A stretch of DNA of 64,000 nt from positions 82,998,408 through 83,062,407 of the forward strand of contig OX377202.1 of the NCBI GenBank assembly GCA_947396885.1, in the 5' to 3' direction. The position numbers and the translations under genes were made by a program. Numbering within the stretch: position 1 is the first letter of the stretch; the number at the start of each line of letters is the position of its first letter. Origin of the DNA: Heligmosomoides polygyrus polygyrus (lineage: Eukaryota; Nematoda; Chromadorea; Rhabditida; Heligmosomidae). Of the stretch, positions 2,725-49,600 are shown piece by piece. The notes under the pieces are model-generated. The model saw only the letters and a program-made list of their open reading frames with translations. It had not been told where the DNA came from and did no database searches.

Positions 2725-5700
2725 TTGATACTTTGATGGTCCTTTGTCGGCTGGAGGTCTTCTCAGCGGGGACCACAACTCTTCCAGACCGCTCGATCTC
2801 TGGCTGCATGCATCCAGTGAGGCAGACTCCGCTCTCTGAAAGATCTTGAGAATGAGTCTGCCCATCGCGTTGGCGGTCGTCCCAGTGGTCTCTTATGGTC
2901 TCTCGGGAGCCATTCTGTGACACGGAGACTCCATCTATCGTCCTTTCGTCGAAGCAGGTGTCCGGCCCAGCGATATTTGGACTTATTCATGTACTGCAGC
3001 GGGTCTGCTAATTGCGACTTCTCCCGTAGCTCCGAGCTTCGTAGGCCTTCTTGCCATTGCTGACGAAGGCTTGTCCTTAGAAGACATCTCTCCAGTGCAC
3101 GATACGTAGTTTGCATCGCTCTGGCGATTTTCTTGTTGTCGGGCCAGGTTTCCGTCGCGTAACACATCGCAGGCAGTACAGAGGCGTTGAATATCGAGGC
3201 CCTGAGGCCGGCATCCTTGACCTGATCGGTGACTTCGCGAATCGAACTGAAAGCTGCCCATGCTGCGCGTCTCCTGCGGGCGATTTCAGGAGCGAGGTCG
3301 TTAACCATGTTCAGCTCTCTTCCCAGATAGACGTAGGAGTCGACCTGTTGCAGAGCGACTCCATTTAACCTTATGAGTCCCGTGTCACACCACTGGTTGA
3401 CCATAAATTGCGTTTTGGACATATTCATGTCCAATCCAATCTTCATACCTGCCACATTGAGCTCGTTCAGCATTTCCTCGACTTCTGCCGTGCTGGTAGA
3501 TATGAGAACAATATCGTCGGCGAAGCGAAGGTTGCTGATCCGTTTACCGTCGACAAGGTAGCCTTTATCGTCCCAGTTCAAGTCTTTCATGGCATCCTGG
3601 AGTGCCGCTGTGAATAGCTTGGGAGAAATCGTGTCTCCCTGCCGTACTCCTTTCCCGATAGGAATTTTAAGCTTTCGATCGAACAGCTGGATGGTAGTCG
3701 ATGTGTTCGAGAAGCATTCGTCGAGAAGTCGGATGTAGGGCGATGGTATACCAGCGTGCACAAGTGCGTTCAAAACGGCGTTGATTTCCACAGAGTCGAA
3801 CGCTTTCCGGTAATCCACGAAGACAAGGACAAGTGGGAGGTGGTATTCGCGGCTCCTCTCGATGAGCTGTGAGACAGTCTGAATATGGTCCATGCAGGAG
3901 AAATCCTTGCGAAACCCTGCTTGCTCCACTGGCTGATATTCATCCAAGCAACGCTCCATGCGGTTAAGCAGTATCTTGGTGAAGATCTTGTACACAACCG
4001 AGAGAAGACTGATGGGTCGATAGTTGTTGATATCCTCCTGCTGACCTTTTTTGAAGATTAAAACTGTTTTCGACTCCTTCCATGAGTCCGGAATCCTACC
4101 AATTCGAAGGTAGTGGTTGAAGTGCTTGGCAAGAAGTGAGCAGACGGCACTGCCACCCGCACGAAGGAGATTAGCAGAAATGCCGTCCGGTCCGGGAGCA
4201 GTGCCCGGCTTCATCCTTCTGATGGCATGAGCAACTTCTGATTCCAGAATGGGAGGTACTTCCTCAGCTGGTGGCATCAAGCATTTCGGGACAGTGATGG
4301 AAGAACGGAACAGATCTGTGTAGAATTCCTGAACGATGGCCTCCATCGCTCTTCGAGACGTTTGCGTTGTTCCATCCTTATCCACAAGGGCTGACATTAT
4401 TGCCTTCTGATCGCAGAGATCTCGTTTGCAGCGCTTTATGCTTGAACCTTTCCCAGCCGCTTCTAACAGCTTCAATCTTCTGTAGGCTTGAATGGACTCC
4501 TTCACTGCAATTCGACAGGCCTTCGAGATGGTGACTTTTTCCAGATGGGAAGCATTAGGATCCAGTTTAACAGCTCTTCTTTGCTCCAAGAGTTTAATCG
4601 CATGTGCGTTGAGTCTTGAAGCAGACGGTGATGTGGCTTCGCAAGAGCTGCTAGCACATTTCAGCAGTCCTTTGGAGAGAAGGTCGTAGTCTTCCGATGG
4701 ATCTTCAAGAAGATTCCAATCGTACGACTTTATCGCATATTCCAACTCCTCAGACTTGAATGTGGGGATCCTCACCGGTGCCGGTTTATGAGTGTCACGC
4801 TTGAACATCCTCTTTTTGAGAGTCAGCTTCGCACGGACAAGACGGTGATCCGAGCCGGTGTCAAATGAAGGCAGCACGGAGACGTCGAACAGACTCCAGC
4901 GTCTGTTTGTAAGAACATGGTCGATCTCCGAACGTGTTTCTCCATTTGGGCTTTCCCAGGTCCATCTTCGGTTTGAAGGCTTCTTAAACATAGAATTTCC
5001 ATGGTAGAGACGGCACGCGGATAGGAAGTCTATCAGGCGCTCTCCGTTTTCGTTCCTTGAGGAAGTTCCATGTGGTCCTAGCCTCCATTCGTCGTGATCA
5101 TTCGTACCGACGATAGCGTTAAAGTCACCAACTACAACTTTGTAGTAGCTCTTCTCGTCGTTGACAGTCCTTTCGAACAGCTTGTAGAATTCCTCCTTTT
5201 CTTCATCTGTGGCCGCAGATGTTGGAGCATATCCATTTATGATGGAGATGGTTCCTTGATCTTTGGTTTCCAGACGAAGAACAGCTACTCGCGGACTGAT
5301 GATCTTATAAGAGTCTACTAGGTGGTGCACTGTCGAATTGACGAGAAATCCAACTCCGCCAATATTCTTTCTGTCCACCTTTGCTCCGATAATGAGAAGC
5401 TCGTTGTGGTCGGTCCTTCTTATGGTTTCCGTTCTGCCTTTCGTTTCCTGCAGGGCGATAACGTCGTATTTGATGTTGCGGCTTCTGTAAAGCAGTGTCC
5501 GAAGATCCTGCTCAGATGCGATCGAACGACAGTTATAAGTGCAGACGAACAGGCAGTTTCCGTGTCGTGGTGGGAGGGAGTTTCCGGTAGTCCGATTCCA
5601 ATGACGTCCTGATAGTTTAACTCCGAGATTAGATGGCCCCTCGCCGAAGGTGGATGCAACCGACGTCGTAGAAGTCCACCTCCGGCGCGCGGAGGACTGG

Positions 5701-5830
5701 GGCGCGGGTTTAGTTGTTTGAGCCGTACCGGTGGTCTGGTTACTCACATGTTCCTGGCCAGGGATACAGGAGAGCCGCCCATACACGACAAAGCGTCGCG
5801 TACTGCGTGACCGTTTGTGCCGTTAGCCAC
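2725..5830 (-). mobile_element. RTE-clade non-LTR retrotransposon, apparently full length
   Basis: A minus-strand LINE built around one long open reading frame (see the CDS at 2763-5786). The 3' UTR is very short: about 40 bases after the stop it ends near a TTTGATACTTTGATGG block. The same block ends the second copy near 29600, so this marks the shared 3' end. Single ORF, apurinic-type endonuclease plus reverse transcriptase and minimal 3' UTR are all usual for RTE elements. The 5' boundary is uncertain; GC-rich sequence to about 5890 could be 5' UTR. Confidence 0.88.
2763..5786 (-). CDS. RTE endonuclease-reverse transcriptase (1007 aa)
   Basis: One uninterrupted frame. From about residue 80 an endonuclease/exonuclease/phosphatase domain begins (CTYNCRS, then DVIALQETKG, VVGDFNA and GSDHRLV), carrying the Asn, Glu, Asp and His positions expected for target nicking. 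The reverse transcriptase follows with GTAPGPDG, NYRPISLL, VDYRKAFDS, GVRQGDTISPKLF and the catalytic FADDIVLIS. The C-terminus has the family GRPPTRW block. The length suits an RTE polyprotein. No frameshift or stop was seen, so this copy could be autonomous. A broken relative lies at 29600-30960, and 3' fragments of related elements lie at 40980 and 60455. The start chosen is the first Met of the open frame; the true start could be internal. Confidence 0.9.
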   Translation of the reverse strand: MYGRLSCIPGQEHVSNQTTGTAQTTKPAPQSSARRRWTSTTSVASTFGEGPSNLGVKLSGRHWNRTTGNSLPPRHGNCLFVCTYNCRSIASEQDLRTLLYRSRNIKYDVIALQETKGRTETIRRTDHNELLIIGAKVDRKNIGGVGFLVNSTVHHLVDSYKIISPRVAVLRLETKDQGTISIINGYAPTSAATDEEKEEFYKLFERTVNDEKSYYKVVVGDFNAIVGTNDHDEWRLGPHGTSSRNENGERLIDFLSACRLYHGNSMFKKPSNRRWTWESPNGETRSEIDHVLTNRRWSLFDVSVLPSFDTGSDHRLVRAKLTLKKRMFKRDTHKPAPVRIPTFKSEELEYAIKSYDWNLLEDPSEDYDLLSKGLLKCASSSCEATSPSASRLNAHAIKLLEQRRAVKLDPNASHLEKVTISKACRIAVKESIQAYRRLKLLEAAGKGSSIKRCKRDLCDQKAIMSALVDKDGTTQTSRRAMEAIVQEFYTDLFRSSITVPKCLMPPAEEVPPILESEVAHAIRRMKPGTAPGPDGISANLLRAGGSAVCSLLAKHFNHYLRIGRIPDSWKESKTVLIFKKGQQEDINNYRPISLLSVVYKIFTKILLNRMERCLDEYQPVEQAGFRKDFSCMDHIQTVSQLIERSREYHLPLVLVFVDYRKAFDSVEINAVLNALVHAGIPSPYIRLLDECFSNTSTTIQLFDRKLKIPIGKGVRQGDTISPKLFTAALQDAMKDLNWDDKGYLVDGKRISNLRFADDIVLISTSTAEVEEMLNELNVAGMKIGLDMNMSKTQFMVNQWCDTGLIRLNGVALQQVDSYVYLGRELNMVNDLAPEIARRRRAAWAAFSSIREVTDQVKDAGLRASIFNASVLPAMCYATETWPDNKKIARAMQTTYRALERCLLRTSLRQQWQEGLRSSELREKSQLADPLQYMNKSKYRWAGHLLRRKDDRWSLRVTEWLPRDHKRPLGRPPTRWADSFSRSFRERSLPHWMHAARDRAVWKSCGPR

Positions 5831-8274: not shown

Positions 8275-9066
8275 CTAGGAGACTTCTTGCAGATACCTGT
8301 CAATAATCGTTTTATATTGCCTCAAGGAGTTTGCAAGCACAAATTTCTTTGTTAATTTCAGGAATTCAGTGCCTGCTCTGTTTGTGAAGAAAGTAGATCT
8401 AATATTACTATGAGCTCTAGGAATTTGGATATTCCATGGGCCACCTCTGGTGTTCGAATGAGATATTGAATAGAAGTCATTTACAGAAAGACCCACAGTA
8501 GCATTTATCATCTTATAAATTGTGACCAAATCATATCTTTTCCTGCGACAGGCGAGAGAGCGCAAATTAAAGAGTTTATTCCTTTCAGATGCCAAGGGGA
8601 TGCTGTTGTAGTCATATCCATGTACTCTTATCCAGAGCTTTCTTGTAAAACTGTTTTGCACCGCTTCCAATCTGGCGATTTCTCGCTTGGTATTAGGACT
8701 AAACACAGTAGTACCATACTCTAGCATAGGCCTCACATAGGTCTTGTATGCGCGTAGTAAGTGTACTACTGAGTTCGTTCTTAGGGATTTAAATATACTA
8801 TGTACAACTCTTTCAGCCCTCTTTGCCGTATATTCGCAATGCTCTCTGAAGGAAAGCTTATTGTCCAAAATGAAACCTAAGTCACGCAATGAAACAGTGC
8901 TATTGAGTTGTACTCCACCAAGACTATAAGTATTTCTGTTGGATTGCTGTCCCAGATGGAGAACTTTGGTTTTTTTCCCTTGATAACGGAAGGTCCCACA
9001 TTGTTGACCAATCCGCAACTGCGTTAATTGCAGTTTGGAGAGCAACGTGGTCGTTCTCCTCAACAA
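8275..9066 (-). CDS. LINE ORF2 C-terminal region (shifted frame)
   Basis: Continues ORF2 beyond the break near 8970. True homology starts around TKVLHLGQQ and runs through LGFILDNKLSF, LEYGTTVFSP, LEAVQNSFTRKLW and a C-terminal block ending DRYLQEVS, a layout typical of jockey/CR1 RT C-termini. The upstream residues of this frame overlap ORF2 out of phase and are not real. The one-base shift lies in a homopolymer, so it may be a copying slip in this copy or an assembly error. Confidence 0.8.
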   Translation of the reverse strand: MLRRTTTLLSKLQLTQLRIGQQCGTFRYQGKKTKVLHLGQQSNRNTYSLGGVQLNSTVSLRDLGFILDNKLSFREHCEYTAKRAERVVHSIFKSLRTNSVVHLLRAYKTYVRPMLEYGTTVFSPNTKREIARLEAVQNSFTRKLWIRVHGYDYNSIPLASERNKLFNLRSLACRRKRYDLVTIYKMINATVGLSVNDFYSISHSNTRGGPWNIQIPRAHSNIRSTFFTNRAGTEFLKLTKKFVLANSLRQYKTIIDRYLQEVS

Positions 9067-11050
9067 TGTTCCTGTATATTTTTATGTCATCAGCAAACAT
9101 TTTGCAAGTGACACCGTATTCATCAATCAGAGAGGGAATTTCGGCAGTATAGATAATAAAAAGGACTGGTGAGAGTACGCCTCCTTGAGGGACTCCACTA
9201 GTAACTGGAAGGGACTCGGAAAATGACTCATTGACCTTAACCTGAAAAGATCTTCCAGTTATAAAGTTTTTTATCCAATTAGTTATCCTTGGATGAACAC
9301 CGATTTTCGTCAGTTGGAATATCAGCTTATTTGATGGAACCTTGTCAAAAGCTTTCATAAAGTCAAAGTAAATAACGTCTACATCGATCCTTTCATCAAG
9401 AGCTCTCGTCCAGTCATTTAACGCAGACAGCATTAATGTTTCAGTAGACCTTCCTGCGCGAAACCCGTGCTGATTGGTTGGAATTAGGGAATTTGATTCA
9501 ATATGGGTTACGAGAGCAGATTTGAGTTTCTTTTCGAATATTCTGGCAAAAACGGAAGTGATGCTTATGGGGCGATAATTGGCAACAAGATTGTGAGGTG
9601 CTTTCTTGGGGATCGGAGTAACAAAAGCGTGTTTCCAACGAGCAGGGACTTCTCCTAACATATAACTCGCGTTAAATATGTGCTCCAATGGGTACGATAT
9701 CGCTATGGCAATTTTTTGTATAAAATAAGGTGGCACTTCATCCGGAGTAACGGTAAAGGTTGCAGGTAAGGAAGACAATGCCTCGTAGATTTCTTCCTTG
9801 TAAAACCATATCGAACTTTCCATACTGTGAACAGGGCTCGCGGAATCTAAAGCATCATTATTTGGAAGGGACACCGAGAAGGATTTTTGAAAGTGTTTGG
9901 CGAGCATGGAAGCCTTAGACATATCAGATACTGCTGATAGACCTGCAGCATCCTTCAGGGGTGGGATTCGTTCGGGTCGCTTTAGCACAGAATTTAATAA
10001 GGTGTAAAGAGATGCTTTATTGGGCCTTTCAAGAATTTTTCTTTCAACATATTTGTGATACCTATTCAGAAGCCGATCAAACCTATCGCTCAAAGCTTTG
10101 AAACGGCTAAAGTTGTTCTCACTTGGATGAGTTTGATAATCTGTCCACCTTTTTTGTCTTTGTTCAAAAATCCTGACCAAGTTTGGCGGCAGCTTACCAT
10201 AATTGAGAGGTAGCCTTTCCAAGGGCACGAACTCTTGAATGCAACTGTGCAATATAGATAGGAAGAACTCATATTTGTCGTTAACGGAACGGTATTCCTC
10301 AAGGAGCATTCTCCAATCCAGTGACAGTAGAAACTGACAGATATGAGAATAGTTAGCCTTATGAAATGACCTTCTCAGGCGAAATGCAGGCCTGTTTGTG
10401 AGACACTCAATGGTAAAGAAAATACTTGAGTGATCACTGGATCCAATTGGTGGAAGAATGTCAACGTTCTTAACCAGGCGTGCCTCACTGCTAAGAATGA
10501 GGTCTAACACACTGTCGTTCCGAGTTGGTTTTGAAACATTTTGGTGGAGCTTGCATGATATGCACATCTCCACAAAACGTTTCGAGGCCATACTGACACT
10601 GGAAGGAGAACTCCTAGACCATTCAATGTCTGGCAGATTGAAATCGCCCATAATCACACACTGTGATTTGGAAGAGCAGAGATCGCTTATTGTCTTGATC
10701 AATTGGAGTGTGTGGTTGATAGGAGCGCTAGGTGCCCTATAAATAGCTATTATCCTTAAAGATGCCTGGGGTAGCTTCAAATCACAAGAAAGTAGTTCAA
10801 AGCCATCAGCGATTGATTCAGTCCAAATGGTCTCAAAAACAATTGGAAGCCTAATAAGGATAAGAACTCCACCACCTCTTTTACTTGTCCTATCACATCT
10901 CACATAAGAATATTTGCTGCACAAATCACCAAGAATTGGACCAGCGTCAGTGAATTCATTTAACCATGTCTCTGTCAGAATAACTAAGTCACAATTTAAG
11001 TTTATTAAAGTAAAACGAAGTGGCAAAATATTCTTCTGGATTGATCGCAC
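8924..11050 (-). CDS. LINE ORF2: endonuclease and reverse transcriptase (708 aa to the frame break)
   Basis: The frame is open upstream of 11050 to about 11090, overlapping ORF1. It includes LKCLYCNVRSI, the first endonuclease motif, yet shows no ATG there, so the start is probably by reinitiation or a non-AUG codon. Endonuclease motifs LVILTETW, GDFNLPD and GSSDHSS are present. RT motifs follow: NYRPISITSVF, YFDFMKAFDKVP, SGVPQGGVLSPVLF and MFADDIKIY. The frame stops at 8924 after an A7 run near 8970; the C-terminal part continues in another phase at 8275-9066. Except for that one-base shift the polyprotein looks intact. Confidence 0.85.
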   Translation of the reverse strand: MRSIQKNILPLRFTLINLNCDLVILTETWLNEFTDAGPILGDLCSKYSYVRCDRTSKRGGGVLILIRLPIVFETIWTESIADGFELLSCDLKLPQASLRIIAIYRAPSAPINHTLQLIKTISDLCSSKSQCVIMGDFNLPDIEWSRSSPSSVSMASKRFVEMCISCKLHQNVSKPTRNDSVLDLILSSEARLVKNVDILPPIGSSDHSSIFFTIECLTNRPAFRLRRSFHKANYSHICQFLLSLDWRMLLEEYRSVNDKYEFFLSILHSCIQEFVPLERLPLNYGKLPPNLVRIFEQRQKRWTDYQTHPSENNFSRFKALSDRFDRLLNRYHKYVERKILERPNKASLYTLLNSVLKRPERIPPLKDAAGLSAVSDMSKASMLAKHFQKSFSVSLPNNDALDSASPVHSMESSIWFYKEEIYEALSSLPATFTVTPDEVPPYFIQKIAIAISYPLEHIFNASYMLGEVPARWKHAFVTPIPKKAPHNLVANYRPISITSVFARIFEKKLKSALVTHIESNSLIPTNQHGFRAGRSTETLMLSALNDWTRALDERIDVDVIYFDFMKAFDKVPSNKLIFQLTKIGVHPRITNWIKNFITGRSFQVKVNESFSESLPVTSGVPQGGVLSPVLFIIYTAEIPSLIDEYGVTCKMFADDIKIYRNIVEENDHVALQTAINAVADWSTMWDLPLSREKNQSSPSGTAIQQKYL

Positions 11051-11097
11051 ATTGCAATAAAGGCATTTAAGATTATTGACAGGTGTCCGGGGAGGTT

Positions 11098-11823
11098 TTA
11101 TGAGTTTACCGAAGACACATTGAGTTGAGTCCTTTGGGAGTCAACAGCTGACACGTTGTGAGAGACACGGCGCGCTAACCAAGCTTCTCGATTGCGCTCT
11201 CTCTCCTCCTTCGTAAGTGAGGGCCGTATATATACGCCCTTGGAGGAAAAAGAACGCAATCGCGGAGCCCTCCTAAGGATCAGAGATTTATAGAACGTGT
11301 TAGGTAGCAGAACCTTTACAAGACGGGGACGATCAGCTTGAGGTTTGCCAAGTCTATACGTTATTTGGGGGATACATTCAATCTCGAGATGGTTGAGAAT
11401 GCTCTTAACAAAGTCGAGATCATGCAGAGCCCTTTCAGTAGACTTTGGGTCCTTTGATTCTGGAATACCAGAAATAACCACTGATCGTTGCCTTTCTTTC
11501 TCCTCGACTAGGGACACCACATTAGCCGTGGCTTCAGGAAACGATCGAGATGATTCACTTTTTCCTGCTTCAGCCAACGCGCTTTTTAGGGCCATATTTT
11601 CCTCTCGCAAGCAAGAGATCTGCTCCTGCAACTCTTGGTTTTTCGCAAGAACCGAGCAGAGCTGCTTCTGGACGCTGAACATATGGCTTATAAGCGTCTT
11701 TAAAAACAACGGTGTCTTCTTATCTGCGTGCAATTGTTCCAATGCTGCTGCGACTTCGTTTGAACCGAGTCCCGCCTCGCTTTCGTCACCGGTCTTCTGC
11801 ACAATAGTCCTTGAGGGCGCCAT
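11098..11823 (-). CDS. LINE ORF1 protein (241 aa), coiled coil plus RRM-like domain
   Basis: First ORF of the younger LINE. Residues about 35-90 are rich in Leu, Glu and Gln with heptad-like spacing (QKQLCSVLAKNQELQEQIS), suggesting a trimerising coiled coil. From about residue 110 the sequence resembles the RRM-like domain of LINE ORF1 proteins (RSVVISGIPE, followed by RLGK and RPRLVKVLLP). The C-terminus is basic (EERERNREAWLARR). Such proteins bind element RNA and form the RNP for retrotransposition; the specific function is inferred. It is intact. Its stop overlaps the open frame of ORF2 in the -1 phase. Confidence 0.8.
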   Translation of the reverse strand: MAPSRTIVQKTGDESEAGLGSNEVAAALEQLHADKKTPLFLKTLISHMFSVQKQLCSVLAKNQELQEQISCLREENMALKSALAEAGKSESSRSFPEATANVVSLVEEKERQRSVVISGIPESKDPKSTERALHDLDFVKSILNHLEIECIPQITYRLGKPQADRPRLVKVLLPNTFYKSLILRRAPRLRSFSSKGVYIRPSLTKEERERNREAWLARRVSHNVSAVDSQRTQLNVSSVNS

Positions 11824-12930: not shown

Positions 12931-13179
12931 ATTATGGACAACAATGCCCAAGCCACTGTTTCCTCGATTTCAGTTCAATGATTAGTGCCCTCTTAAGTGT
13001 TGCCTTGAAAATCCTCTATTCCTCCTCTCCATCCTTTGAGTTTATGTGATAAGTGCTCCATATTGCACGACCATTGAGAATGTAATTTCTGAGCCCTTTC
13101 AAAGCTTAGGCTCATGTTTCAAGGCTGAAATAAGACAGAAAATCTGATAAAACACTTGCTTCTCCGAACATCGAAAGTG

Positions 13180-13378
13180 TAAGGCGAACATCGCTGCCCG
13201 GAAAGCAGAAGATGCGGGTTCGAGTCCCGCCTGGCGCAAGAGTTTTGATCGCAACAAAACATCCTGTAACAACATATAGCTTAGTTCTCCATTGGCTGGC
13301 CGCCGCAAGTCCACATACACATTCAAATTCTATCCAGTAGATCGGGTAGAAGTAAAATGCATGGCGTGGCCCTAACAT
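13180..13378 (+). repeat. tRNA-derived SINE
   Basis: Contains a perfect T-arm/B-box (GCGGGTTCGAGTCCCGC) followed by TGGCGC, then AGTTTTGATCGCAACAAAACAT. The body shares CATTGGCTGGCCGCC, CATTCAAATTC and GCATGGCGTGG with other SINE copies in this window. The D-arm side is decayed, so this is a SINE and not a working tRNA. Copies with the same head lie at 40430-40550 and 58735-58835 on the minus strand. Confidence 0.65.
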
Positions 13379-37687: not shown

Positions 37688-40600
37688 CTAACTTTTGGGT
37701 CTAGCTTGGTCAGTCTCTGTAGCAGTCGTGTGAGAGGACACTGTCACGGGCATCGGTGTGAGCGGCTGCGGCTGCAGATGGATGCCGCCGATCGTGTGTT
37801 CCGAGGGGGAGGTGGCGGCGACGACGCACACCTCTCCGGATGAGACGGCGATGTGCTTGCTGCGTTGGCCGCCGGGGTCAGTCTGCTCCTTGACGAAGTT
37901 CACGAAGGCCTGGTCGAGGCTGTTCTGGGAAACCTGGAAGCAGAGCAGGTGAAACGGCGGCAGCATCGGTACTTCAGTGAGTCGCCGGGTGGTGAAACTG
38001 ACCGAAAATGACAGCACCAAATCGCTGAGGTTTGCGCCGGCGAAATGGAAGAGCTGAGAGAGGTCGCACGGCGGCGGCAGCTCGAAGTGGAGCAGGGTTG
38101 CGTGGGTTTCCTGAATTCGTAGCACTAGTTCTGACACGCTGAATCTCTTCCACTTTTCTTTAGACATGCATGAATTCCCCTATGCATGAGCCGCGCACCA
38201 ACCGCGTGAAATGACCCACCCACTTCAAGACCGGCGTCGAGCTTAATGGTGCATTTGATAACGCTAACATCTCCTAGCTCAATCAGTGTCTGCTATCTGT
38301 CATCGTAAGATCGTCGGCTCAATGCTTTTAAACTTTCTACTCGCAGCCGGCCCACCACTAGCTTGAACTGAGGATTTGGGGATCAATCCTCAGTTCAAGC
38401 TAGTGGTGGGATCAATCCTAGTCGAAGGAAGCACCACTAGAAAAGGCAAAAGACCACATGGTTCCTCCAAACTAGGATTGCAATCTCAGACGGAGACCCA
38501 TGATTCCGATACTTGAATTTAAGGTGGACTCCTCTTTAGATCTCATCGGCCTGCTGTGGAACACAATTTCAAAGATACCATTAGATCCTTACCAGCAGAA
38601 TTGACTTCGGAAAAGCGGATCTGAAGCGCTCAACCACTTTGGCCTTCTCCTCGCCAACCATGGAGCATAAGCGGAAGCGAATACTGTAACCGGTCCCGTG
38701 GCGAGTTTTGATCAGTAGTGGTGACCCTGCAACGCACCGTTGTGCACCTTCTCCAGCACCTAACTCACTCAGAAACAACTTACGCACCAACACATTTGAT
38801 TTCTCCGTTGACCATGATCGCCAATTTCCCGCAGAGAGCTTCACTTTCGGACATCGAGTGAGTCGTTAGTACGATGCTTCTGCCTTCCCTCACCAGCGTG
38901 TAGACGATCTAAACAGATCTGTAAGTGATGGTCACTAGTAAAAATCGGAGGGTTGGGTTACAATGCAGGTGCGAACAGCAGCGCACAAGGTTTGGCCTCT
39001 AGATGCTGGACAGAGACGCCGACCTGCTTATGACGTGGGCTGCAAGACACTTCTTTGGAGAAGATGCCGTCGAGTCAGAAGGCCATGGATGAACAACTGA
39101 ACCACCCCTACCTCATCCATCCTTCAGCGCATTTGATAACCGACTGATAAAAGAACGCGAATCATTGGGATGTCTAAAGTAAACAGACGGTTAAGCGGTG
39201 GAGAGAATTCTCGTGGAGCAGGCCGAATGGTACAGCGTAAGACGTTGAAATAATGGAAGAAGGGTTTGTGGCCACTTGGAGTTTCGGAGTCTCAGCCTTT
39301 TACCCATTTTCAGTTAATACCACAGTCGTCGTCTGAAGCTCGTCAGCGTCCTCTAACAATGGACGTCTACTGAGCGTGAAGCTCTCTGACGTACAAGAAA
39401 GTGTTAGGTTGTAGAGAGAGTTCTGGTGCTTTCGGAAAGCACGTCTTTTCCTCCCTCATACTACGTCTCAGCAGCTTGTTTTGTGGATACATAAGGAGAT
39501 CGCTGAAGTTGATTTCAAAAGTTTTGAACAAAACCCAATTTTACATTACAAAGGAAGATGAGATGAAATAAACATTACGAAGAAGAGTGAGACTGGACCC
39601 CCTCTCTAGAGTTTCAGGAGATCTTGTGTGTGAAGGCTTTTTCTTACTACCAACCTCCTTCTATTGGTATTCGCGCGGGTATGCGGGGTGTAAGGGGTTG
39701 GTATGTATGCTTCATCGTGGGCTTCTGTACCCCTTGCACCCATGAGTTTAATCATTGATCAATGTGGCCCCTGTTGTGCACATTGGGTTCCCCACAAATG
39801 ACGGAAAGCGAGCGCCAGCAACGTGAGAAGGTGGCTACCGTATTTACGTTGTACAGGCGCACAAATAAATGGCTGCAGTCCAGATTCACGTTGGATGAGA
39901 AGTGGTGTCTGTATGCCAGCAAGCGCCGTCGACACTGGGTTAACAAACACGGGCAGCTTGATCCACCGTTGAAGGTCGGCCTCCACACCCCTGAAGGCTG
40001 TGGTTCGCATTTGGTGGAATTGTAAAGGCATCACCCACTACCAGCTGCTGCCACGCAACACTACCCTCACGGATCTGGTTTTGTAGGTTTAAAAAATCTA
40101 TCCGATGCAGAAGACCTCCAACCAGGTGGGCAGATAAGTTCGTCGCATGGCTGATCCAACTGGCAAGTCGGGAACGAATCAAGCAGCCCGTCAACGACAC
40201 CAAGTTCGAATGGCAGCAACGACTTGGATGATGATGGCGAGGCAATGAAACGAATGAAAGCGGTGCTATGACCCGCACAATCAGTGTAGACGGCCATCTA
40301 AGTTTGTGCCTCAAGAGTTCGTAAAAAACTAAACGTACTTTCTTGCAGTTTGGAGGATGGAGATTCTTCCTATTGTATAAATAATTTCTACGTCTTTGCC
40401 TAAACATGGAGCGGCTGTTATAGAAGACAAAAACTGTTGGAGGACGTTTGGTTGCGATGGTTGATGAAACTCTTGCGCGAGGCGGACTCAAACCAGCACC
40501 TTCTACTTTAAAGTAGCGGTGCTACGCCGTACACCACCAGCGCTGTTTGATCGTATGGAAAGTGCACCTTCGATATGTCAAGCATCCTGGAAAAATCTTC

Positions 40601-43600
40601 CCGTTCTTGCTGCTTCGATGTACCGCTGAGACAGTTCCCATGTAATCGTCTAAACAAGGACTCGTTGGTGTGCTCGGTACGAGGCCTGATCTCGCCTGCT
40701 ACTTCGAATCGATCGGTTTGGTGTCCATGCCAGCAATTATCCTCCCACCCATCCGAACTGGCACCACATTCGTCAGGGATCGAGAACAGAGAGCTGTTAA
40801 CGGCGTTCCCCACTGGTTATTGCCCAGACCGCATACGCGGATGAGCAATCATCTCGGTCGAATTAAAATGAGTGGCAGGGTATACAGGTAAGGGCCAGCA
40901 AATTCAACCACCATTTTAGCCGTCATTCAAAAACGGTTCTAAAGAATCTACGTTTTTACATTGTTAAACACAATACTACGGTGATACCACATATCATTAG
41001 GACGGTGCTCGAAGTGATGCGATTCACGCAATTGAGAGGTTTAGGGAGTTCCGAGCTTCCTCGATGTTCGAAGATCAGAGACGCTGTTCCATGGGCCAAG
41101 CCGTTGAAAATTAAGTGGGCCAGCTACGTGATGCCCTTCGCTGACACCCGCTGGACGAGAGTCGACTGGATTCCAAGCTGTGTCAAGGGAACACCAGGAC
41201 GCCCACCAACGCGTTGGTTGGACCACTTCGTGAAGGCCTGAACGAACGATATGACACTCTTCATGCCCCTCGAGCGAGTAGGATCCAGTGGAGCAATCTG
41301 GCACGCGACACGGACGAATGGAGACGCTGCTGCCCTCCCCCCCCACAATTCTATGAGCAATGGGGCGACAGGTGATACAGGTGAATATCCTACTATATGT
41401 AAGTGAGAACGGCCGTTTGTCTGTCTGTTTGTTTGCTTGCATAGGAGTGCTAGAGGAGTGTGTTGGGGAAAGTGGGGATGGGGGGGGGGGGGGAGAGTTG
41501 TAGTTGTGCAACCTGCCTGGCGACTCAGTAGGCGTGCCGAACACGGTGCCGGAGGAGTGTTTCACTACAGCTAATTTCACTAGAGTTCTCCATGCGCGTT
41601 TGGCCACACATGACATGTGGGAAAACCCTTAACTTTAAGTGTTAGTATTGTGCCAAAACGAGGTTATTGTAATGGGTGTAAGGAATTTAAGATATAATAG
41701 TGTAGATTAAGGGATAAAGGGATTATCCTAGGTAAGATCTGTTCTGGTATGTACTGCGGTCTTGCCAGCCGACCCAACAGTCGAGATGTGTATAGCGATA
41801 CACATCTCGACTGTTGGGTCGGCTGGCAAGACCGCAGTACATACCGGAACAGATCTTACCTAGGATAATCCCTTTATCCCTTAATCTACACTATTATATC
41901 TTAAACTCCTTACACCCATTATATTATTATGGTGAATCTTCTTTATTTATGCGTGGTCCAACGTTTCGACGAGATCGTCGTCTTCAGAGGCCTGAACGTA
42001 GTGCAAGATTGAAGCTGCACTCTACCCCGTAGCCCTCCAGCATTTCCGAAAGCAACGAGGGCCTCACCAAAGTATTTCGAAGAGAAGGATGCACTCACGA
42101 TTCGATCCACCAAGAGTGCCGATGCCACTCTGCGTTAGTAAGGTTAGCGAGGACGAATGAGACTTACTGCAGCGGTCGTATACCACTATGAAATAATAAC
42201 AACCCTGCACGTCGTCCTCTATTCCACAGCTCACATCTAGGCACAAACGGCAGAAAGTCATGTGTGATTGACGGACGTTCATGGCGGTCGTTTATACTAG
42301 GATTCCTTGCGAAGATCCAGAACGCCTCCAACGCTTTGCGTGCCGAAATTTCTGTCTCTACGGCCAGAATCGTGCATCTAATGCCAAAATCGTTACCGTC
42401 GTGGTCAACCGCCCTATGCCTTCCTAGGGGTGTTCTTAAATTAATACGATCTTTGCCAGCCAGATGCTCTTTAACTCGAACAGCTAGCCTTCTTCCGGTT
42501 TCCCCAATGTATGTGGCGTTACAAGCCTGACATTCGATTTGATAGATTGCCCCATATGAGAACAATCACCTAGTTTACCGTAGGGACATGTAACGCAGTT
42601 CTCTGACAAGCACTGCTTATCGTAGAGCCTGTTTCTAACTAGCTGACGCTTGATTTTATCGTTTGGGATGTCAACTAAAACAACATCGTTTTTCAGCTGA
42701 GCTCGCACAATGCTCCTTTGAATTGCAGCGCTTACCTTATCAGAGATAAAAGGCATGCAAAGGGGTACCCTGCTTTCGTGCGGTTGTTCTGATTGGCGGT
42801 TAGCTTTGACTCTGTGCCGACGATGAGAAACGGTATAGCCGTTCTCTTTGGCTATATTTGAAGCCAATCTCAATGATTCCAGCCGCTCCTGATCACCTGT
42901 GCACACTTGTGAGGCCGTTCGAAACATGTTTCTTACGACACTACGCTTTATGACTACAGGATGAGCAGAGGTCGTAGAGACAGAAATTTCGGTACGCAAA
43001 GCGTTGGAGGCGTTCTGGATCTTCGCAAGGAGTCCTAGTATAAACGACCGCCATGAATGTCCGTCAATCACACATGACTTTCTGCCGTTTGTGCCTAGAT
43101 GTGAGCTGTGGAATAGAGGACGACGTGCAGGGTTGTTATTATTTCATAGTGGTATACGACCGCTGCAGTAAGTCTCATTCGTCCTCGCTAACCTTACTAA
43201 CGCAGAGTGGCATCAGCACTCTTGGTGGATCGAATCGTGAGTGCATCCTTCTCTTCGAAGTACTTTGGTGGGGCCCTCTTTGCTTTCGGAAATGCTGGAG
43301 GGCTACGGGGTAGAGTGCAACTTCAATCTTGCACTGCGTTCAGGCCTCTGAAGACGACGATCTCGTCGAAACGTTGGGCCACGCATAAATAAAGAAGATT
43401 CACCATAATAACCTCGTTTTGGCACAATACTAACACTTGAAGAACTTGAAATGCCGAGGTTTTACGAAGGGAGAAGCTTTGATTTCATACCCTTAACTTT
43501 ATTGGATTGGTGATCTCGGCACCGTTTTACGATGGGGGCAGTCCTCCTTAGGTTGTTACCTCAGTACTAATAGCACAGACTTGGCCGAAAGGCTAGTAAT

Positions 43601-46600
43601 GTAACATGTTGCAGTGATTTTCTGCTGTTAATGTAAGGAGGGGTGGAATCGGATGTACAAAGTCAGCTAGTATCCACTATGAATGACCAACATTTTCCCA
43701 GGAAAGGCAACGCAGAGATGCAGAAACTATGCTTGTTCAAGAAACCGTTTCAGAATTTTCTGTAATGTAACACGGGATAAAGAGATAAGACCGACCTCCC
43801 ACAGGAACAGCCGGCATTTCGGATCCATACCAGCTGTTGGTTCATCAAGCAAGAGAAGCATAGGATCTCCAATGAGCGCTTGTGCTAAGGAAAGCTTTCG
43901 CTAAAAAACGCAATAACCAAAACGTTGCACTGAGAAAACTCATACGGACATGCTACCTTTGTTCCACCACTTAGAGCTTCGCATTTAGTGTCAGCATAGC
44001 GAGAGAGATCGAGCGCTTCCATAAGACGGTCAGCAATCTGAAAGAAGAAAGTCCGATAACGCTTCTCAAAAAGCAACGAGAAAATGTTCTAAGAAATTAT
44101 GAATCACGTTCTAAATATAACCTACTGATAGTTAATGCAATAACATGGTAGCGCAGTCGAGGTTGATGCCTGCTGTCGCGTGCGCCCGTTTCCAGGTTCC
44201 TGGTTAGGATTTCTAGCCCAGGCCAACCAAGCCTTCCATCCCTTCGGGATTGGGGCATGGTACCAGACCTCTCTGGCAAGGACGCGAAGCACTGACTTTT
44301 AGATCATTTGATCCCAGTAAGTCATTGTATGGCCAAACACGCATTTAAACGGATTCCACAACAATATGATTGCACTAACCAGGGAACTACCTGAAGTGTA
44401 GGTCGCCTCCCTCTCAGAAGTAGCAATGTGCAAGTATCTCCACCCGAGTGGAACTTTGAGTAGAGTTACGACCCGTGGAAGCTGCACCATTGGTGGTGAA
44501 GCAAGCAAGAAGAATGATATCTTATCGTTCTCGAGTTCATTGTTCCTCCGAAGGCGTGTGTTGACCAGACGGCTGAGTGAGTAGCATAGCAGACTCACGA
44601 GTGAATGATGAGGGTTTCGATCCTGTGTGGGGCATGTCTTTCGCATTATCGCAAACCTCATGTTTATGTGAGCGAACAGTGAGCAGGCAGACTACAGGTT
44701 TGGATGCCATCCAAACTTCACCTATACATCCTGTCGCCCATTGATCATCGAGTTGTTCCAGCTGGCGTCATTTCTGTCGTGCCAGGGTGTTCCAATGAAT
44801 CATTCTCGCTGTAGGAACATATCGTTCGTTTGGGGATTTTGCGAAGAAGTTCGAACGTCCTGGTGCTCCTTAACCCCTTCCCCCAAATAAAGTCGCTACC
44901 CTCCATACAAAACGCGTTACGTGGCCGGCCCACGTAGAGTAGGACATGCAAGAGCGTCTCTAGTCCTCAAACGTCGACAAAGCTCGGAACTCCGGAGGTC
45001 CTTTCTTACCTACTTGAATCGTGTAACTTCGAGCATCGTCATTTCGACTGCTCGCTTCGTGATATGATGGTCACGTATTCATTCTGCTTTTTTATGGTAC
45101 TTCAGTGCAGAAAGAGAGCAGTGATGTCGAATAGGTGGGAAGGGAGCCAGAAGTTCTTCATCTTCTTAATGACTACTTGGTAGAACTCTGGCTTTTTTCG
45201 TCCTTTTTCAGATTGTCTGCGTGAGGTTCACTTAGAGTCTAATGCTCTCACATAGAGGAAGTCGGCCAGCATTCGCTCCTTTTGACTAATACTTGGTGTT
45301 ATAGACATCGTGACTTTTACGGTTTAGGAGGACCCAAACCAGGAACTCAGATTTCGGAGTGCTCTAGGAAGCTGGTCCCTCTCTGTTACACTTACTAAAC
45401 ATGATACACTAGTTTTCAACAAACCAAGGTTGTTTTCCGTACCAGCTTCACATGTAGAGTACCAAGAATTCATGGTTCTTGGTTTGGTCTCGACAAGACT
45501 AGCTACAAGTTTCCCATCCCGGCTGGAGCGGCGGTTTTGTAGCAGACATGTCTCGGAAGGATAAATTCTGACTCGTCCATCGTTTGGCCACCCAAGCCAC
45601 TATAAAGGGTAAATTCGCACCGAAACAGTCTTAACGGTATCACGTGGGAGCAGGCATCGGCGCACGGCGCATCCCAAACTGGGATATAGTAACGCCAACC
45701 TTCATTCTTCATAAGGGTTAACAACATGTAGACCTGTTGTTTACCTGCTCTACTGTCAGCGCATCACCCACTCCTCGCATTGGAAATGAAGTTTGTGGAA
45801 ATGCAAAAGATGTGCCACACGCAGGATCCAAACGCCTAACCTTTCTCTCGTGAGCCTACTCCCTTATCCATTCGGCCGTGTGGTTGGCACTCACCTTCGG
45901 GGGAACAATGAACTCGAGAGTGAGATACCAGCCTTCCTGCTTGCTTCACCCCTCCACTTCAACGATGCAGCTTCCACGGGCCTTAACTCTGCTCAAAGTC
46001 ACACTCGAGTCGAGCATACGTGCATATTGTTACTTTTGAGAGAGAGGGGCTTTTGCCCATATTAATCGCATCGCTGGCACAGACCTACACTTCAGTTAGT
46101 TCCCTGGTAAGAGCTGTTGTCCACTCCTTTTTCGTGCTCATCGACACATGAAAAATGTGAGTCCTTAAAGTGGACTAGTGTATTGCCAGGGATCAGAATG
46201 ATTTGTTTGATTTTCAAGGGGAGAAACTAAGACGCTTCAGGCTTTAGGTCAGTCAACATTGAACATCTTGTAACACATCGCCCTCTTCTGAACCTAGAAC
46301 GTACGTAAGCAATGCCCTGCAAGCTTACAGCAGGGGGTCCTTCCTCATTATCGTTCATAAAATGCTGATTATGGCCCAAAAACGTTCAGGGTGAAAATGA
46401 TTAGCACGGCTACGTATGCTAACTGCAGGAGGACACTGCTGCGGTTAGGCTAATGCTATCAGTTGTGTTTTCCTACCCCCCCCCCCCCGCGCCTCTAACC
46501 GTGCACTTTTAATTTGACCTCGAAGTATACATTGTAACTCTACAGTGCTTTTTCGTTTTTCTTCTTAGAAGAATAAAGCATTTTCTGTTGTACAACACAC

Positions 46601-49600
46601 TAATTCTATTCGCGCTATTCCTATGTATGGGCGCATGTAGCGCAGTACATAGGAGGAGGTGCCGACAGTCGCGAGCACTCGATACCAGGTTCTCGGTTCG
46701 AATTTCCCGTCCAGGCCAACCACGCCTTCATCCCTCTGGATTCAGTGAATTGTTACCAGATTTGTCTGGGAATGATGAAGCGTTGTTCATCGGCTGGTCA
46801 CTGCAGGTCATTATATGGCCAAATGAGCATTCAAATCATCTCCACAACATCCTGTAGAAATAGAATATGTGGCGCATTCCAAAAGTGAAGGTGTAACGCC
46901 GTCCTTTATCCTTTTATCTGTTATTCCTATGGAGGGCAATGCAAAATGACGTTCTTTCAGTCTTTTCTCTGGAAGGGTCATCACCTTTGTAGCTCACAAG
47001 GAGGCTATTCCAGAAAAAGCCTCTGAAACTCCACTGAAAAGGAAACCTCTCTATAAGCGTGTAAACCAGCCTAAATGCTTTCACCTTACTGCAAAATTCA
47101 AATTCCAATGCAGCTTGATCAACGTAGTGCTGGAGTAGGTGCTCAAATCACTGGAGCAGTTCCACCAATTTTTATTGCAGCCATATGAATCCACACGCTA
47201 GCACAGACTTATCTAGGCAGCTTGAGCAGCACAATTTGTGGAATTCGAAAATATGGGGAAATGCGGCTTGGGGGGAGGCTGCGTTGTGGATATTACATTA
47301 AGTGGTTATCCGCCTCACTAAGAAGGCACATAAATTCTCAATTACACCAGAAGTAGCCTAGCCCTTTTCACCACTGAGGTAGGACACATTAGTTCAATGT
47401 AAAAAAAAACTTAATTCCGTGCAACACCTTCCGGGCTGCTTTACATGGAGCGTTTTGCGTCAAATTAAATATTTGATGATTTTCAAAAATCATGATCCCT
47501 TCTTCAATTAGACAACAAGCCAACCTGATAAACAGACGAGGCAGTGTAGCCGTGGAACCTGGCAAGAATCTCCAGATGCTCTCTGGGCGTAAACTCTGTG
47601 TACAATGCGTCGAACTGCGGACAGTAGCCGATGCGAGTGAACGCCTTGGCCCTAAATTAAGATAATTAGTGAAGCACAAAAAGACAGGCCTGATCGATGA
47701 GGAGCAACCCCTGGGCACCTTGGTTTAAGCTTCTCTCGCTCCAACAAAACGACTCCCCGATCCGCCTTCTGCTGTCCACTGAGCACTCGAAAAGTGCTTG
47801 TCTTGCCCGCCCCATTCACTCCTGCAAGGAAAATCTACGTTCTCCGCTCTTCCCGTCTGTCGCATTCTCAGTCACTTACCCAGCAGACCAATGCATTCTC
47901 CCTTTCGAACGGCCCAAGTCACGTCACGCACTGCGTGGTGAGGCTTAGAAAACATGGATCGTCGGTGACACTGAAACGTGGAAGAAAAGTAAATGAATTT
48001 GAGACATGAATGACTCTGTGTGAGAGAGAGTTGTCTGTTTCTGAAAACTGAAGCGCACAACCTCTCTCAAGATTCGGCACACACAACCTTGCAGCAGGTA
48101 GTCGAAACAGCGGTCTACGTTTGCGACAAGAAAGCTACTCCAACATATTCGTCACAACGCGGCAGTTAGCTCATTAATGTAGGCCCAGCAGCAGGCTCAG
48201 TTCGGCTTCGGTGCTGACGGTGACGAACTTGCTTCGGTGCTCGAATCCCATCGGTCCCGATCAAGACGGGCGGATTCATTAACGACATACAGGAATTTAA
48301 CTGAGAAAATACAGCCGAAATCCCTGATCCCTAAGACGGGCGGAAATCTCGAAAATTTCTCCAGGAAACAGATAGGAGAAAACGGGTTTGTCAGAAAACA
48401 GGAAATGTCGAAATTATTGCTCTAACTACCTGTTGTGTAACATCTAAAGATGCATTTTATCAATAACCAACTTTTTTAATACCACTTCTCCTCAGACACT
48501 GACACTTATCGACGTAAGCCAGATAGTTTTGCAATCAAACTGAACATCTCCCAAATCCCCAACAAATGCGAAGATGTACTTTTTTGAAAGTCTCTACCCT
48601 AGTCGAAAGGGGCACATGATGCTTTAATTCAGCGATCTTTCGCTCTCCCTTAAACTTATCCGGGAGCATCACCTGGTGCACCATGATATTAACTGCTCTT
48701 GGGCAAATTCAAGTACGGTGGGTATGTGCCACGACACTAAGGAGACAATTGCCGGTACTTATGAAGCAAAGGGCCCGTGGTGCCGTGGGGCTGCCGGGAA
48801 ACATGTTAACGCGGCAACGGCAACGGAAACGCGGCAACCCACGGCACCCGAGGACGGGTGCTTCATAAGTACCGGCCCCGTGGTGCCGTGGGTTTGCCGC
48901 GTTAACATGTTTACCGGCAACCCCACGGCACCACGGGCCCTTTGCTTCACAAGTACCCAATTGCCTGTTCTTTTTAGGTCTGCCCCCCTCCCTAGTAGGA
49001 TAATAGATCTAATATATCACGTACCCCAAGACATTGAGTACAAGGCTCTAAAATTTTATGAAATTTTGATTTTTGCACGTAAAATGATGAAGCGAGTATA
49101 AGTTCAACGTGGAGTTGTAAAACAGCAATTTTTGGGTGTATGAAGGGCAGAGATCACACCGTGCCGTCGTCTAGGTAATGATTTCTCTTTGTAAATGGTG
49201 TTCTGGAGCTGCAAAAAGGATATGCGTATTTTCTGCAATTGTTTTTGTGCACCGCTCAAAAGTGCGTACTTACACGTAAACAAAATTGTTGCTATCAATC
49301 AAAGGAAAACCCAGATGCTATACGAGTGCATGGGCCATTTGTTCTCCAAACAAGCTGAAAATTTGCTGTTTTCTTCCACTTTAAAATAAATTGCGACATA
49401 TTCTTCCTATAAAAATGAAAATTTAATCAAGTTTCAAACACTGTATTAGACCTTTGGGAATGGTGAGTTAAAAATTTTCCAACCAGGTGAATTCTGCTGA
49501 CGACAAAAACTTCGACCTCTTAATGGGTGTCTGCTTAATGTGCAATGCGACCGTTTTACTTTGAAATTTACGCGAAACATAAACGTAGTTTGTGAAGGAT

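What the first reader, a model, noticed from the sequence alone, without database searches (positions are those of the whole stretch)
41955..43380. Two hammerhead-ribozyme-like motifs in opposite orientation at the ends of one Penelope insertion
Both arms carry CTGAAGA, a GACGA/TCGTC stem II, GAAA and CGTT, with a flanking stem I (five pairs in the 43343-43380 copy). Minimal hammerheads with tiny stem III are known from Penelope elements and may process their RNAs. This version has one extra base between CTGAAGA and stem II, a departure from the canonical core shared by both arms. The left-arm copy differs at stem I (GGACC for GGGCC), which weakens pairing there.
Basis: partly seen in the sequence, partly recalled or inferred. 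Interest (0 to 1): 0.78.

Follow-up and report, generated by a model that had tools for sequence, protein, structure and literature searches.

The report
Decayed Penelope hammerhead, inverted twice
A broken Penelope retrotransposon, probably in a roundworm genome, carries the same small self-cutting-RNA motif at both ends because its tail is present twice in opposite directions; the motif is of a kind already known from Penelope elements and looks weakened here.

Summary
The motif is real: CTGAAGA-C-GACGA/TCGTC-GAAAC-GTT with a 5-pair stem I at 43343-43380 (+), and the same sequence with one stem I mismatch at 41955-41992 (-). These are the ends of one inverted repeat (431 of 442 nt identical, running 31 nt further out), so two copies are one observation. 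The insertion, about 41640-43435, is a 5'-truncated, frameshifted Penelope-like element (GIY-YIG endonuclease), 3' ends outward, with a 255-bp palindrome inserted later. Minimal hammerheads in Penelope elements are known. So is the 'departure': an assayed Anolis element has one extra base (U) at the same place, as does a viroid hammerhead. Here that base is C, reported as harmful in the viroid and able to pair with core base G12. Both arms run about 60 nt past the predicted cut, so the copied RNA was probably not cut there; a transcript of the whole locus is predicted to bury the motif in a long hairpin. I read it as a decayed relic, probably weak or inactive (activity untested). The inverted layout fits copying primed from both sides of one DNA break (inferred). 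No other copies could be obtained, so covariation within the family is untested.

The parts
43343..43380 (+). Right-arm hammerhead-like motif: stem I GGCCT/GGGCC (43343-43347, 43376-43380), CTGAAGA 43348-43354, extra C 43355, stem II GACGA/TCGTC (43356-43360, 43363-43367), GAAA 43368-43371, stem III AC/GT 43371-43374, predicted cut after T43375
41955..41992 (-). Left-arm copy of the same motif; stem I third pair broken (GGACC); predicted lowest-energy fold is a different one
41924..42365 (-). Left arm of the inverted repeat: end of the GIY-YIG endonuclease frame, 3' region, hammerhead, start of the tail
42970..43411 (+). Right arm of the inverted repeat, 431 of 442 identical to the left arm; 3' end faces outward
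41640..41668 (-). Outermost part of the left arm, cut off from the rest by the palindromic insertion (repeat finder reports 41633-41668)
43407..43435 (+). Outermost part of the right arm (tail); inferred 3' end of the insertion, 60 nt past the predicted hammerhead cut
   Evidence: end point inferred from where the arms stop matching and from the candidate target duplication
42366..42969 (-). Unique centre: Penelope linker-like region and first part of the GIY-YIG endonuclease; 5'-truncated, and the linker and endonuclease lie in different frames
42164..42565 (-). Open stretch with GIY-YIG catalytic domain (PF01541, E 5.1e-07); the named relatives are from Necator americanus and Haemonchus contortus
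41669..41923 (.). Near-perfect palindrome, a MITE-like insertion into the left arm, with TTATT at 41664-41668 and 41924-41928; the right arm keeps the site without it
41633..41639 (+). Candidate target-site duplication, left copy CTTTAAG
   Evidence: 6 of 7 match to the right copy, near-palindromic, weak
43436..43442 (+). Candidate target-site duplication, right copy CTTGAAG
   Evidence: 6 of 7 match to the left copy, near-palindromic, weak

Best explanation
A dead Penelope-like retrotransposon copy whose 3' tail, with the minimal type I hammerhead motif usual for such elements, is present twice in head-to-head orientation. Mechanism (inferred): the element's endonuclease cut both strands of the target; reverse transcription started at one internal point of the element RNA, about 60 nt past the hammerhead cut site, from both DNA ends; and the two 5'-truncated cDNAs (about 1.07 kb and 0.47 kb) were joined near 42970-42973. 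The hammerhead had not cut the RNA that was copied. In its present state the motif is probably weak or inactive: the extra C can pair with G12, and the left copy lacks one stem I pair. A palindromic element later inserted into the left arm. My estimates: Penelope hammerhead motif 0.97; template uncut at this site 0.8; weak or inactive as a lone RNA 0.7; two-ended priming 0.45.
For: Motif and stems beyond chance (only the window's right arm has both stems of 3 or more pairs among its own matches and 93 outside matches of the same pattern). It follows a Penelope-type GIY-YIG endonuclease frame on the same strand. Same architecture as the assayed Anolis PAc motif: CUGANGA, one extra base, stem II starting G-C, GAAAC, loopless AC/GU stem III; stem II pairs 2 and 4 differ on both sides and still pair. 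Both arms pass the cut site, stop together near 43435, and the flanks beyond differ. PAc protein cuts and extends both strands, starting at internal RNA sites, and its insertion did not need hammerhead cleavage. Extra base paired to G12 is favoured by 2.5 kcal/mol here, against 0.8 in PAc. Viroid extra base changed to C: major detrimental effect. Inverted pseudo-LTRs are described in rotifer Penelope elements.
Against: No second genomic copy was available, so the family's true 3' end, its usual letter at the extra position, and its covariation are unknown. The target duplication is imperfect and near-palindromic. The viroid result comes from a different hammerhead. Energy predictions are weak evidence: the lowest-energy fold of the PAc piece is also not the hammerhead (-14.4 against -8.6), yet PAc cleaves with its protein. 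The right arm's best fold keeps stems I and II. A dimer or the Penelope protein could rescue activity.
Confidence: 0.7

Rival explanations
1. The motif is an active ribozyme that processes Penelope RNA, acting as a dimer through the self-complementary ACGU of stem III or with help from the Penelope protein.
For: The core letters are intact and the right-arm best fold contains stems I and II. [quoted passage not shown]
Against: The extra base is C; the left copy is broken; each strand of the locus has one sense and one antisense motif, so one transcript cannot offer two sense copies; the whole-locus fold puts 39 and 40 of 40 nt of the motif region in the long duplex. Predicted two-molecule folds of either arm do not show the stem III dimer. 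Both arms pass the cut site.
Confidence: 0.22
2. The inverted layout arose by self-priming on an antisense template, as proposed for rotifer Penelope elements, rather than by two-ended priming.
For: PMC3846280 argues this from palindromes at inverted junctions (passage).
Against: Here the arms are separated by 604 nt of unique sequence, and no inverted repeat of 16 nt or more was reported across the junction near 42970.
Confidence: 0.27
3. The inverted layout is a later DNA-level inverted duplication of one 3' end.
For: One locus cannot tell where the family's 3' end lies.
Against: Both arms stop at the same base with different flanks and a candidate target duplication, though that duplication is weak.
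Confidence: 0.23
4. Chance resemblance to a hammerhead.
For: No Rfam hammerhead model matched. The loose descriptor occurs in 32 of 300 shuffles. A looser PAc-like pattern gave one viral-contig match, L199, with stems of 3 and 4 pairs among 107.
Against: Strict descriptor: 1 hit in 300 shuffles. 0 of 93 outside matches to the window-type pattern have both stems of 3 or more pairs. The motif lies where Penelope elements carry it.
Confidence: 0.02

Closest known systems
Hammerhead of Poseidon_Ac (PAc), a Penelope-like element of Anolis carolinensis (PMC11167929)
   Same: CUGANGA, one extra base before stem II, stem II starting G-C, GAAAC, loopless AC/GU stem III, GUH cut site; genomic copies reach past the cut
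   Different: Extra base U, part of the AUG start codon, in PAc; C here (ACG). Stem I 3 contiguous pairs in PAc, 5 here. Stem II letters and loop differ
[quoted passage not shown] Lunse et al. 2017; neither paper was held, known here through reviews)
   Same: Minimal stem III, location in the Penelope terminal region
   Different: Reviewed as occurring in tandem; here one sense and one antisense copy per strand
Chrysanthemum chlorotic mottle viroid plus-strand hammerhead (PMC3705267)
   Same: One extra base between A9 and G10.1
   Different: Extra base A there, C here; unrelated genetic setting
Rotifer Penelope elements with inverted pseudo-LTRs (PMC3846280)
   Same: Inverted terminal copies around a Penelope body
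   Different: Here the inverted copy includes the end of the endonuclease frame, and the element is 5'-truncated with no direct repeat seen

Membership tests
Hammerhead ribozyme, minimal type I (Penelope kind) | Conserved core CUGANGA ... GAAA ... NUH | tested here: met
Hammerhead ribozyme, minimal type I (Penelope kind) | Stems I and II able to pair | tested here: met
   Right arm 5 + 5 pairs; left arm stem I broken at one pair
Hammerhead ribozyme, minimal type I (Penelope kind) | Covariation of stems among relatives | tested here: inconclusive
   0 of 10 pairs covary between the two arms; against PAc, stem II pairs 2 and 4 differ on both sides and remain paired (a single comparison placed by hand)
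Hammerhead ribozyme (Rfam models) | Match to an Rfam hammerhead model | tested here: not met
   None at gathering score in the window, none at E up to 10 in 39000-46000 or in 43320-43410. The PAc motif was not run against Rfam, so I cannot say that the models miss Penelope hammerheads in general
Hammerhead ribozyme, minimal type I (Penelope kind) | Self-cleavage at the NUH site | not testable with these tools
   Needs transcription in vitro
Penelope-like element | GIY-YIG endonuclease of Penelope type | tested here: met
   PF01541 E 5.1e-07; 30 proteins at E of 0.001 or less among 50 candidates. None of the names given says Penelope; that label rests on established knowledge of this endonuclease in retroelements
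Penelope-like element | Telomerase-like reverse transcriptase domain | not tested
   The copy is 5'-truncated in the linker region; no Pfam family matched the 219-aa open stretch 42484-43143
Penelope-like element | Repeated terminal regions (pseudo-LTR), direct or inverted | tested here: met
   Inverted only

The most novel reading that the evidence does not exclude
The insertion is a product of two-ended target-primed reverse transcription: one Penelope protein complex cut both strands, started copying at the same internal RNA position from both DNA ends past an uncut hammerhead, and the two cDNAs were joined head to head. Inverted Penelope copies would then be direct records of two-strand priming, and their paired outer end points would map the RNA start site genome by genome.
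Probability: 0.42. Interest if true: 0.5.

Novelty: new member of a known kind. Interest (0 to 1): 0.3.

Why it matters
How Penelope elements insert, and what their hammerheads are for, remain open (reviewed as 'still a mystery' in PMC7761336). This locus gives a concrete case in which the copied RNA seems not to have been cut at the hammerhead, and in which both ends of one insertion share an outer end point, as two-strand priming predicts. Counting such end points across a worm genome would test that. The ribozyme motif itself is an ordinary member of a known kind.

Tried and rejected
Independent support from two arms: rejected, they are one inverted repeat. The extra base as a new departure: rejected after reading the PAc leader printed in PMC11167929 and the viroid precedent.

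More copies for covariation: none found. My first two pattern scans (viral contigs, 20 stretches, prokaryote contigs, 13 stretches) carried one fixed base too many and would have missed the window's own motif, so they were a poor search; of their 34 matches none has both stems of 3 or more pairs. A corrected scan of viral contigs (81 stretches) and a PAc-like one (107 stretches) gave, over all 213 loci then held, 93 and 107 outside matches; 0 and 1 (L199, stems of 3 and 4 pairs, not followed further, read as chance) have both stems of 3 or more pairs. The prokaryote collection could not be rescanned (2 of 2 used). Protein scans, tblastn of plasmids and blastn of phages gave no relative; a protein search with the frame through the motif found nothing. 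These collections hold few or no animal sequences, so absence there says little.

Rfam matches to microRNA families around 41744-41847 are the palindrome, below gathering score, and were set aside. Primary papers on Penelope hammerheads and Terminons were not held. Two-strand priming as the source of inverted Penelope copies: the listings show no title or abstract start that says so; this is no proof that it is not in print.

Full report
Observation. CTGAAGACGACGATCTCGTCGAAACGTT occurs at 43348-43375 (+) and 41960-41987 (-); the general pattern was found in 0 of 100 shuffles. A descriptor scan of both strands passes only the right-arm copy. Its loose form is not rare by chance (37 hits, in 32 of 300 shuffles); with both stems at 5 or more pairs it gave 1 hit in 300 shuffles, and random letters between the fixed ones give both stems at a rate of 5.9e-5. 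A natural control agrees: of 93 matches to the window-type pattern in 92 public viral and prokaryote loci, 0 have both stems of 3 or more pairs; the window's right arm has 5 and 5, its left arm 5 and 2. My earlier patterns for this control were mis-set by one base and would not have matched the window's motif.

Anatomy. The two motifs are one sequence. Arms 41924-42365 and 42970-43411 are inverted copies, 431 of 442 bases identical, and they continue as 41633-41668 / 43407-43442, 35 of 36 identical, overlapping the first pair by 5 nt on the right. The left arm is interrupted by a 255-bp palindrome (41669-41923) with TTATT on both sides; the right arm shows the sequence without it, so the palindrome most likely came after the inverted layout. 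The centre and left arm read, on the minus strand, as a linker-like region and a GIY-YIG endonuclease (PF01541, E 5.1e-07) in two different frames. Of 30 relatives found, the six with a species name are from Necator americanus (3) and Haemonchus contortus (3), which suggests a strongylid nematode host (inference). Both 3' ends point outward. Candidate target duplication: CTTTAAG 41633-41639 and CTTGAAG 43436-43442, 6 of 7 and near-palindromic, so weak.

Comparison with an assayed relative. The PAc leader printed in PMC11167929 (passage) reads CUGAGGA-U-GCCUGC...GUGGGC-GAAAC-GUC. It shares the extra base, the first G-C of stem II and the loopless AC/GU stem III with the window motif; stem II pairs 2 (A-U here, C-G there) and 4 (G-C here, U-G there) differ on both sides and still pair. 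This is one comparison placed by hand, not a covariation test; the arms themselves show 0 of 10 covarying pairs and one broken pair. In PAc the extra U lies within the start codon; the window has ACG there, and all three right-arm frames meet a stop within the tail.

Is it active? Not shown. PMC3705267 (passage) reports that in the chrysanthemum viroid hammerhead a change of the extra A to C or G was strongly detrimental, and to U raised the trans-cleaving rate 3-4-fold. In nearest-neighbour energies, pairing of the extra base with G12 gains 2.5 kcal/mol in both arms and 0.8 in PAc; that G12 is a core base is established knowledge, not from a call. The right arm's best fold keeps stems I and II with this extra pair; the left arm's best fold is another one. 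Such folds are weak evidence: PAc's own best fold is not the hammerhead either (-14.4 against -8.6), yet PAc RNA is cut when its protein is present. Two-molecule folds of either arm do not show the stem III dimer. A transcript of the whole locus in either direction folds as a long hairpin, with 429 and 438 of 442 first-arm bases paired to the other arm and 39 and 40 of 40 motif-region bases paired far away. In PAc, hammerhead mutants did not affect insertion. The tail runs 60 nt past the cut on the right arm, and the left arm matches it apart from the later insertion, so the inserted RNA was probably whole at that point; this rests on 43435 being the true end.

Mechanism. PAc protein cuts and extends both DNA strands, and copying starts at internal RNA sites with no difference seen between strands. 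Two cDNAs of different length, both starting at the same RNA position and joined at their far ends, would give this layout: a shared outer end, a unique centre contiguous with one arm, and no long palindrome at the junction. This is inference from one locus. Self-priming (proposed for rotifer elements, passages of PMC3846280) and a later DNA duplication are not excluded.

Known or new. Minimal hammerheads in Penelope elements are established, as reviewed in PMC7761336, PMC6155905 and PMC7229834 (passages); inverted terminal copies are described in PMC3846280 and mentioned in PMC8969392 (passages). Rfam's models did not match. The window adds one nematode-type member, in a decayed state. Of PMC11167929 I read parts 1 and 2 of 4 and passages; every other paper cited was seen as passages only.

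Noticed in passing
41669-41923: Near-perfect 255-bp palindrome with TTATT direct repeats, inserted into the Penelope left arm; it also scores below threshold as microRNA precursor families in Rfam, probably because of its hairpin shape.
   Followed up: partly
43727-44088 and about 47822, minus strand: Pieces that look like an ABC transporter (Walker A-like near 47822, LSGG near 43974, LDEPT near 43849; PF00005 E 0.0015, below Pfam's cut-off). The Penelope insertion lies downstream on that strand, so a host transcript could read the left-arm motif in its sense direction; motif searches showed no following exon.
   Followed up: partly
42970-43411 versus 41924-42365: Of the 11 differences between the arms, 10 are transitions.
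   Followed up: no
43388-43393 (+): AATAAA, a possible polyadenylation signal, starting 13 nt past the predicted hammerhead cut.
   Followed up: no
2763-5822 and 8924-11140, minus strand: Two long frames with endonuclease and reverse transcriptase domains, as in non-LTR retrotransposons.
   Followed up: no
13168-13238: tRNA-like match just above Rfam's gathering score (30.6 against 29).
   Followed up: no
L199 (viral contig): One PAc-like pattern match with stems of 3 and 4 pairs; probably chance among 107 matches.
   Followed up: no
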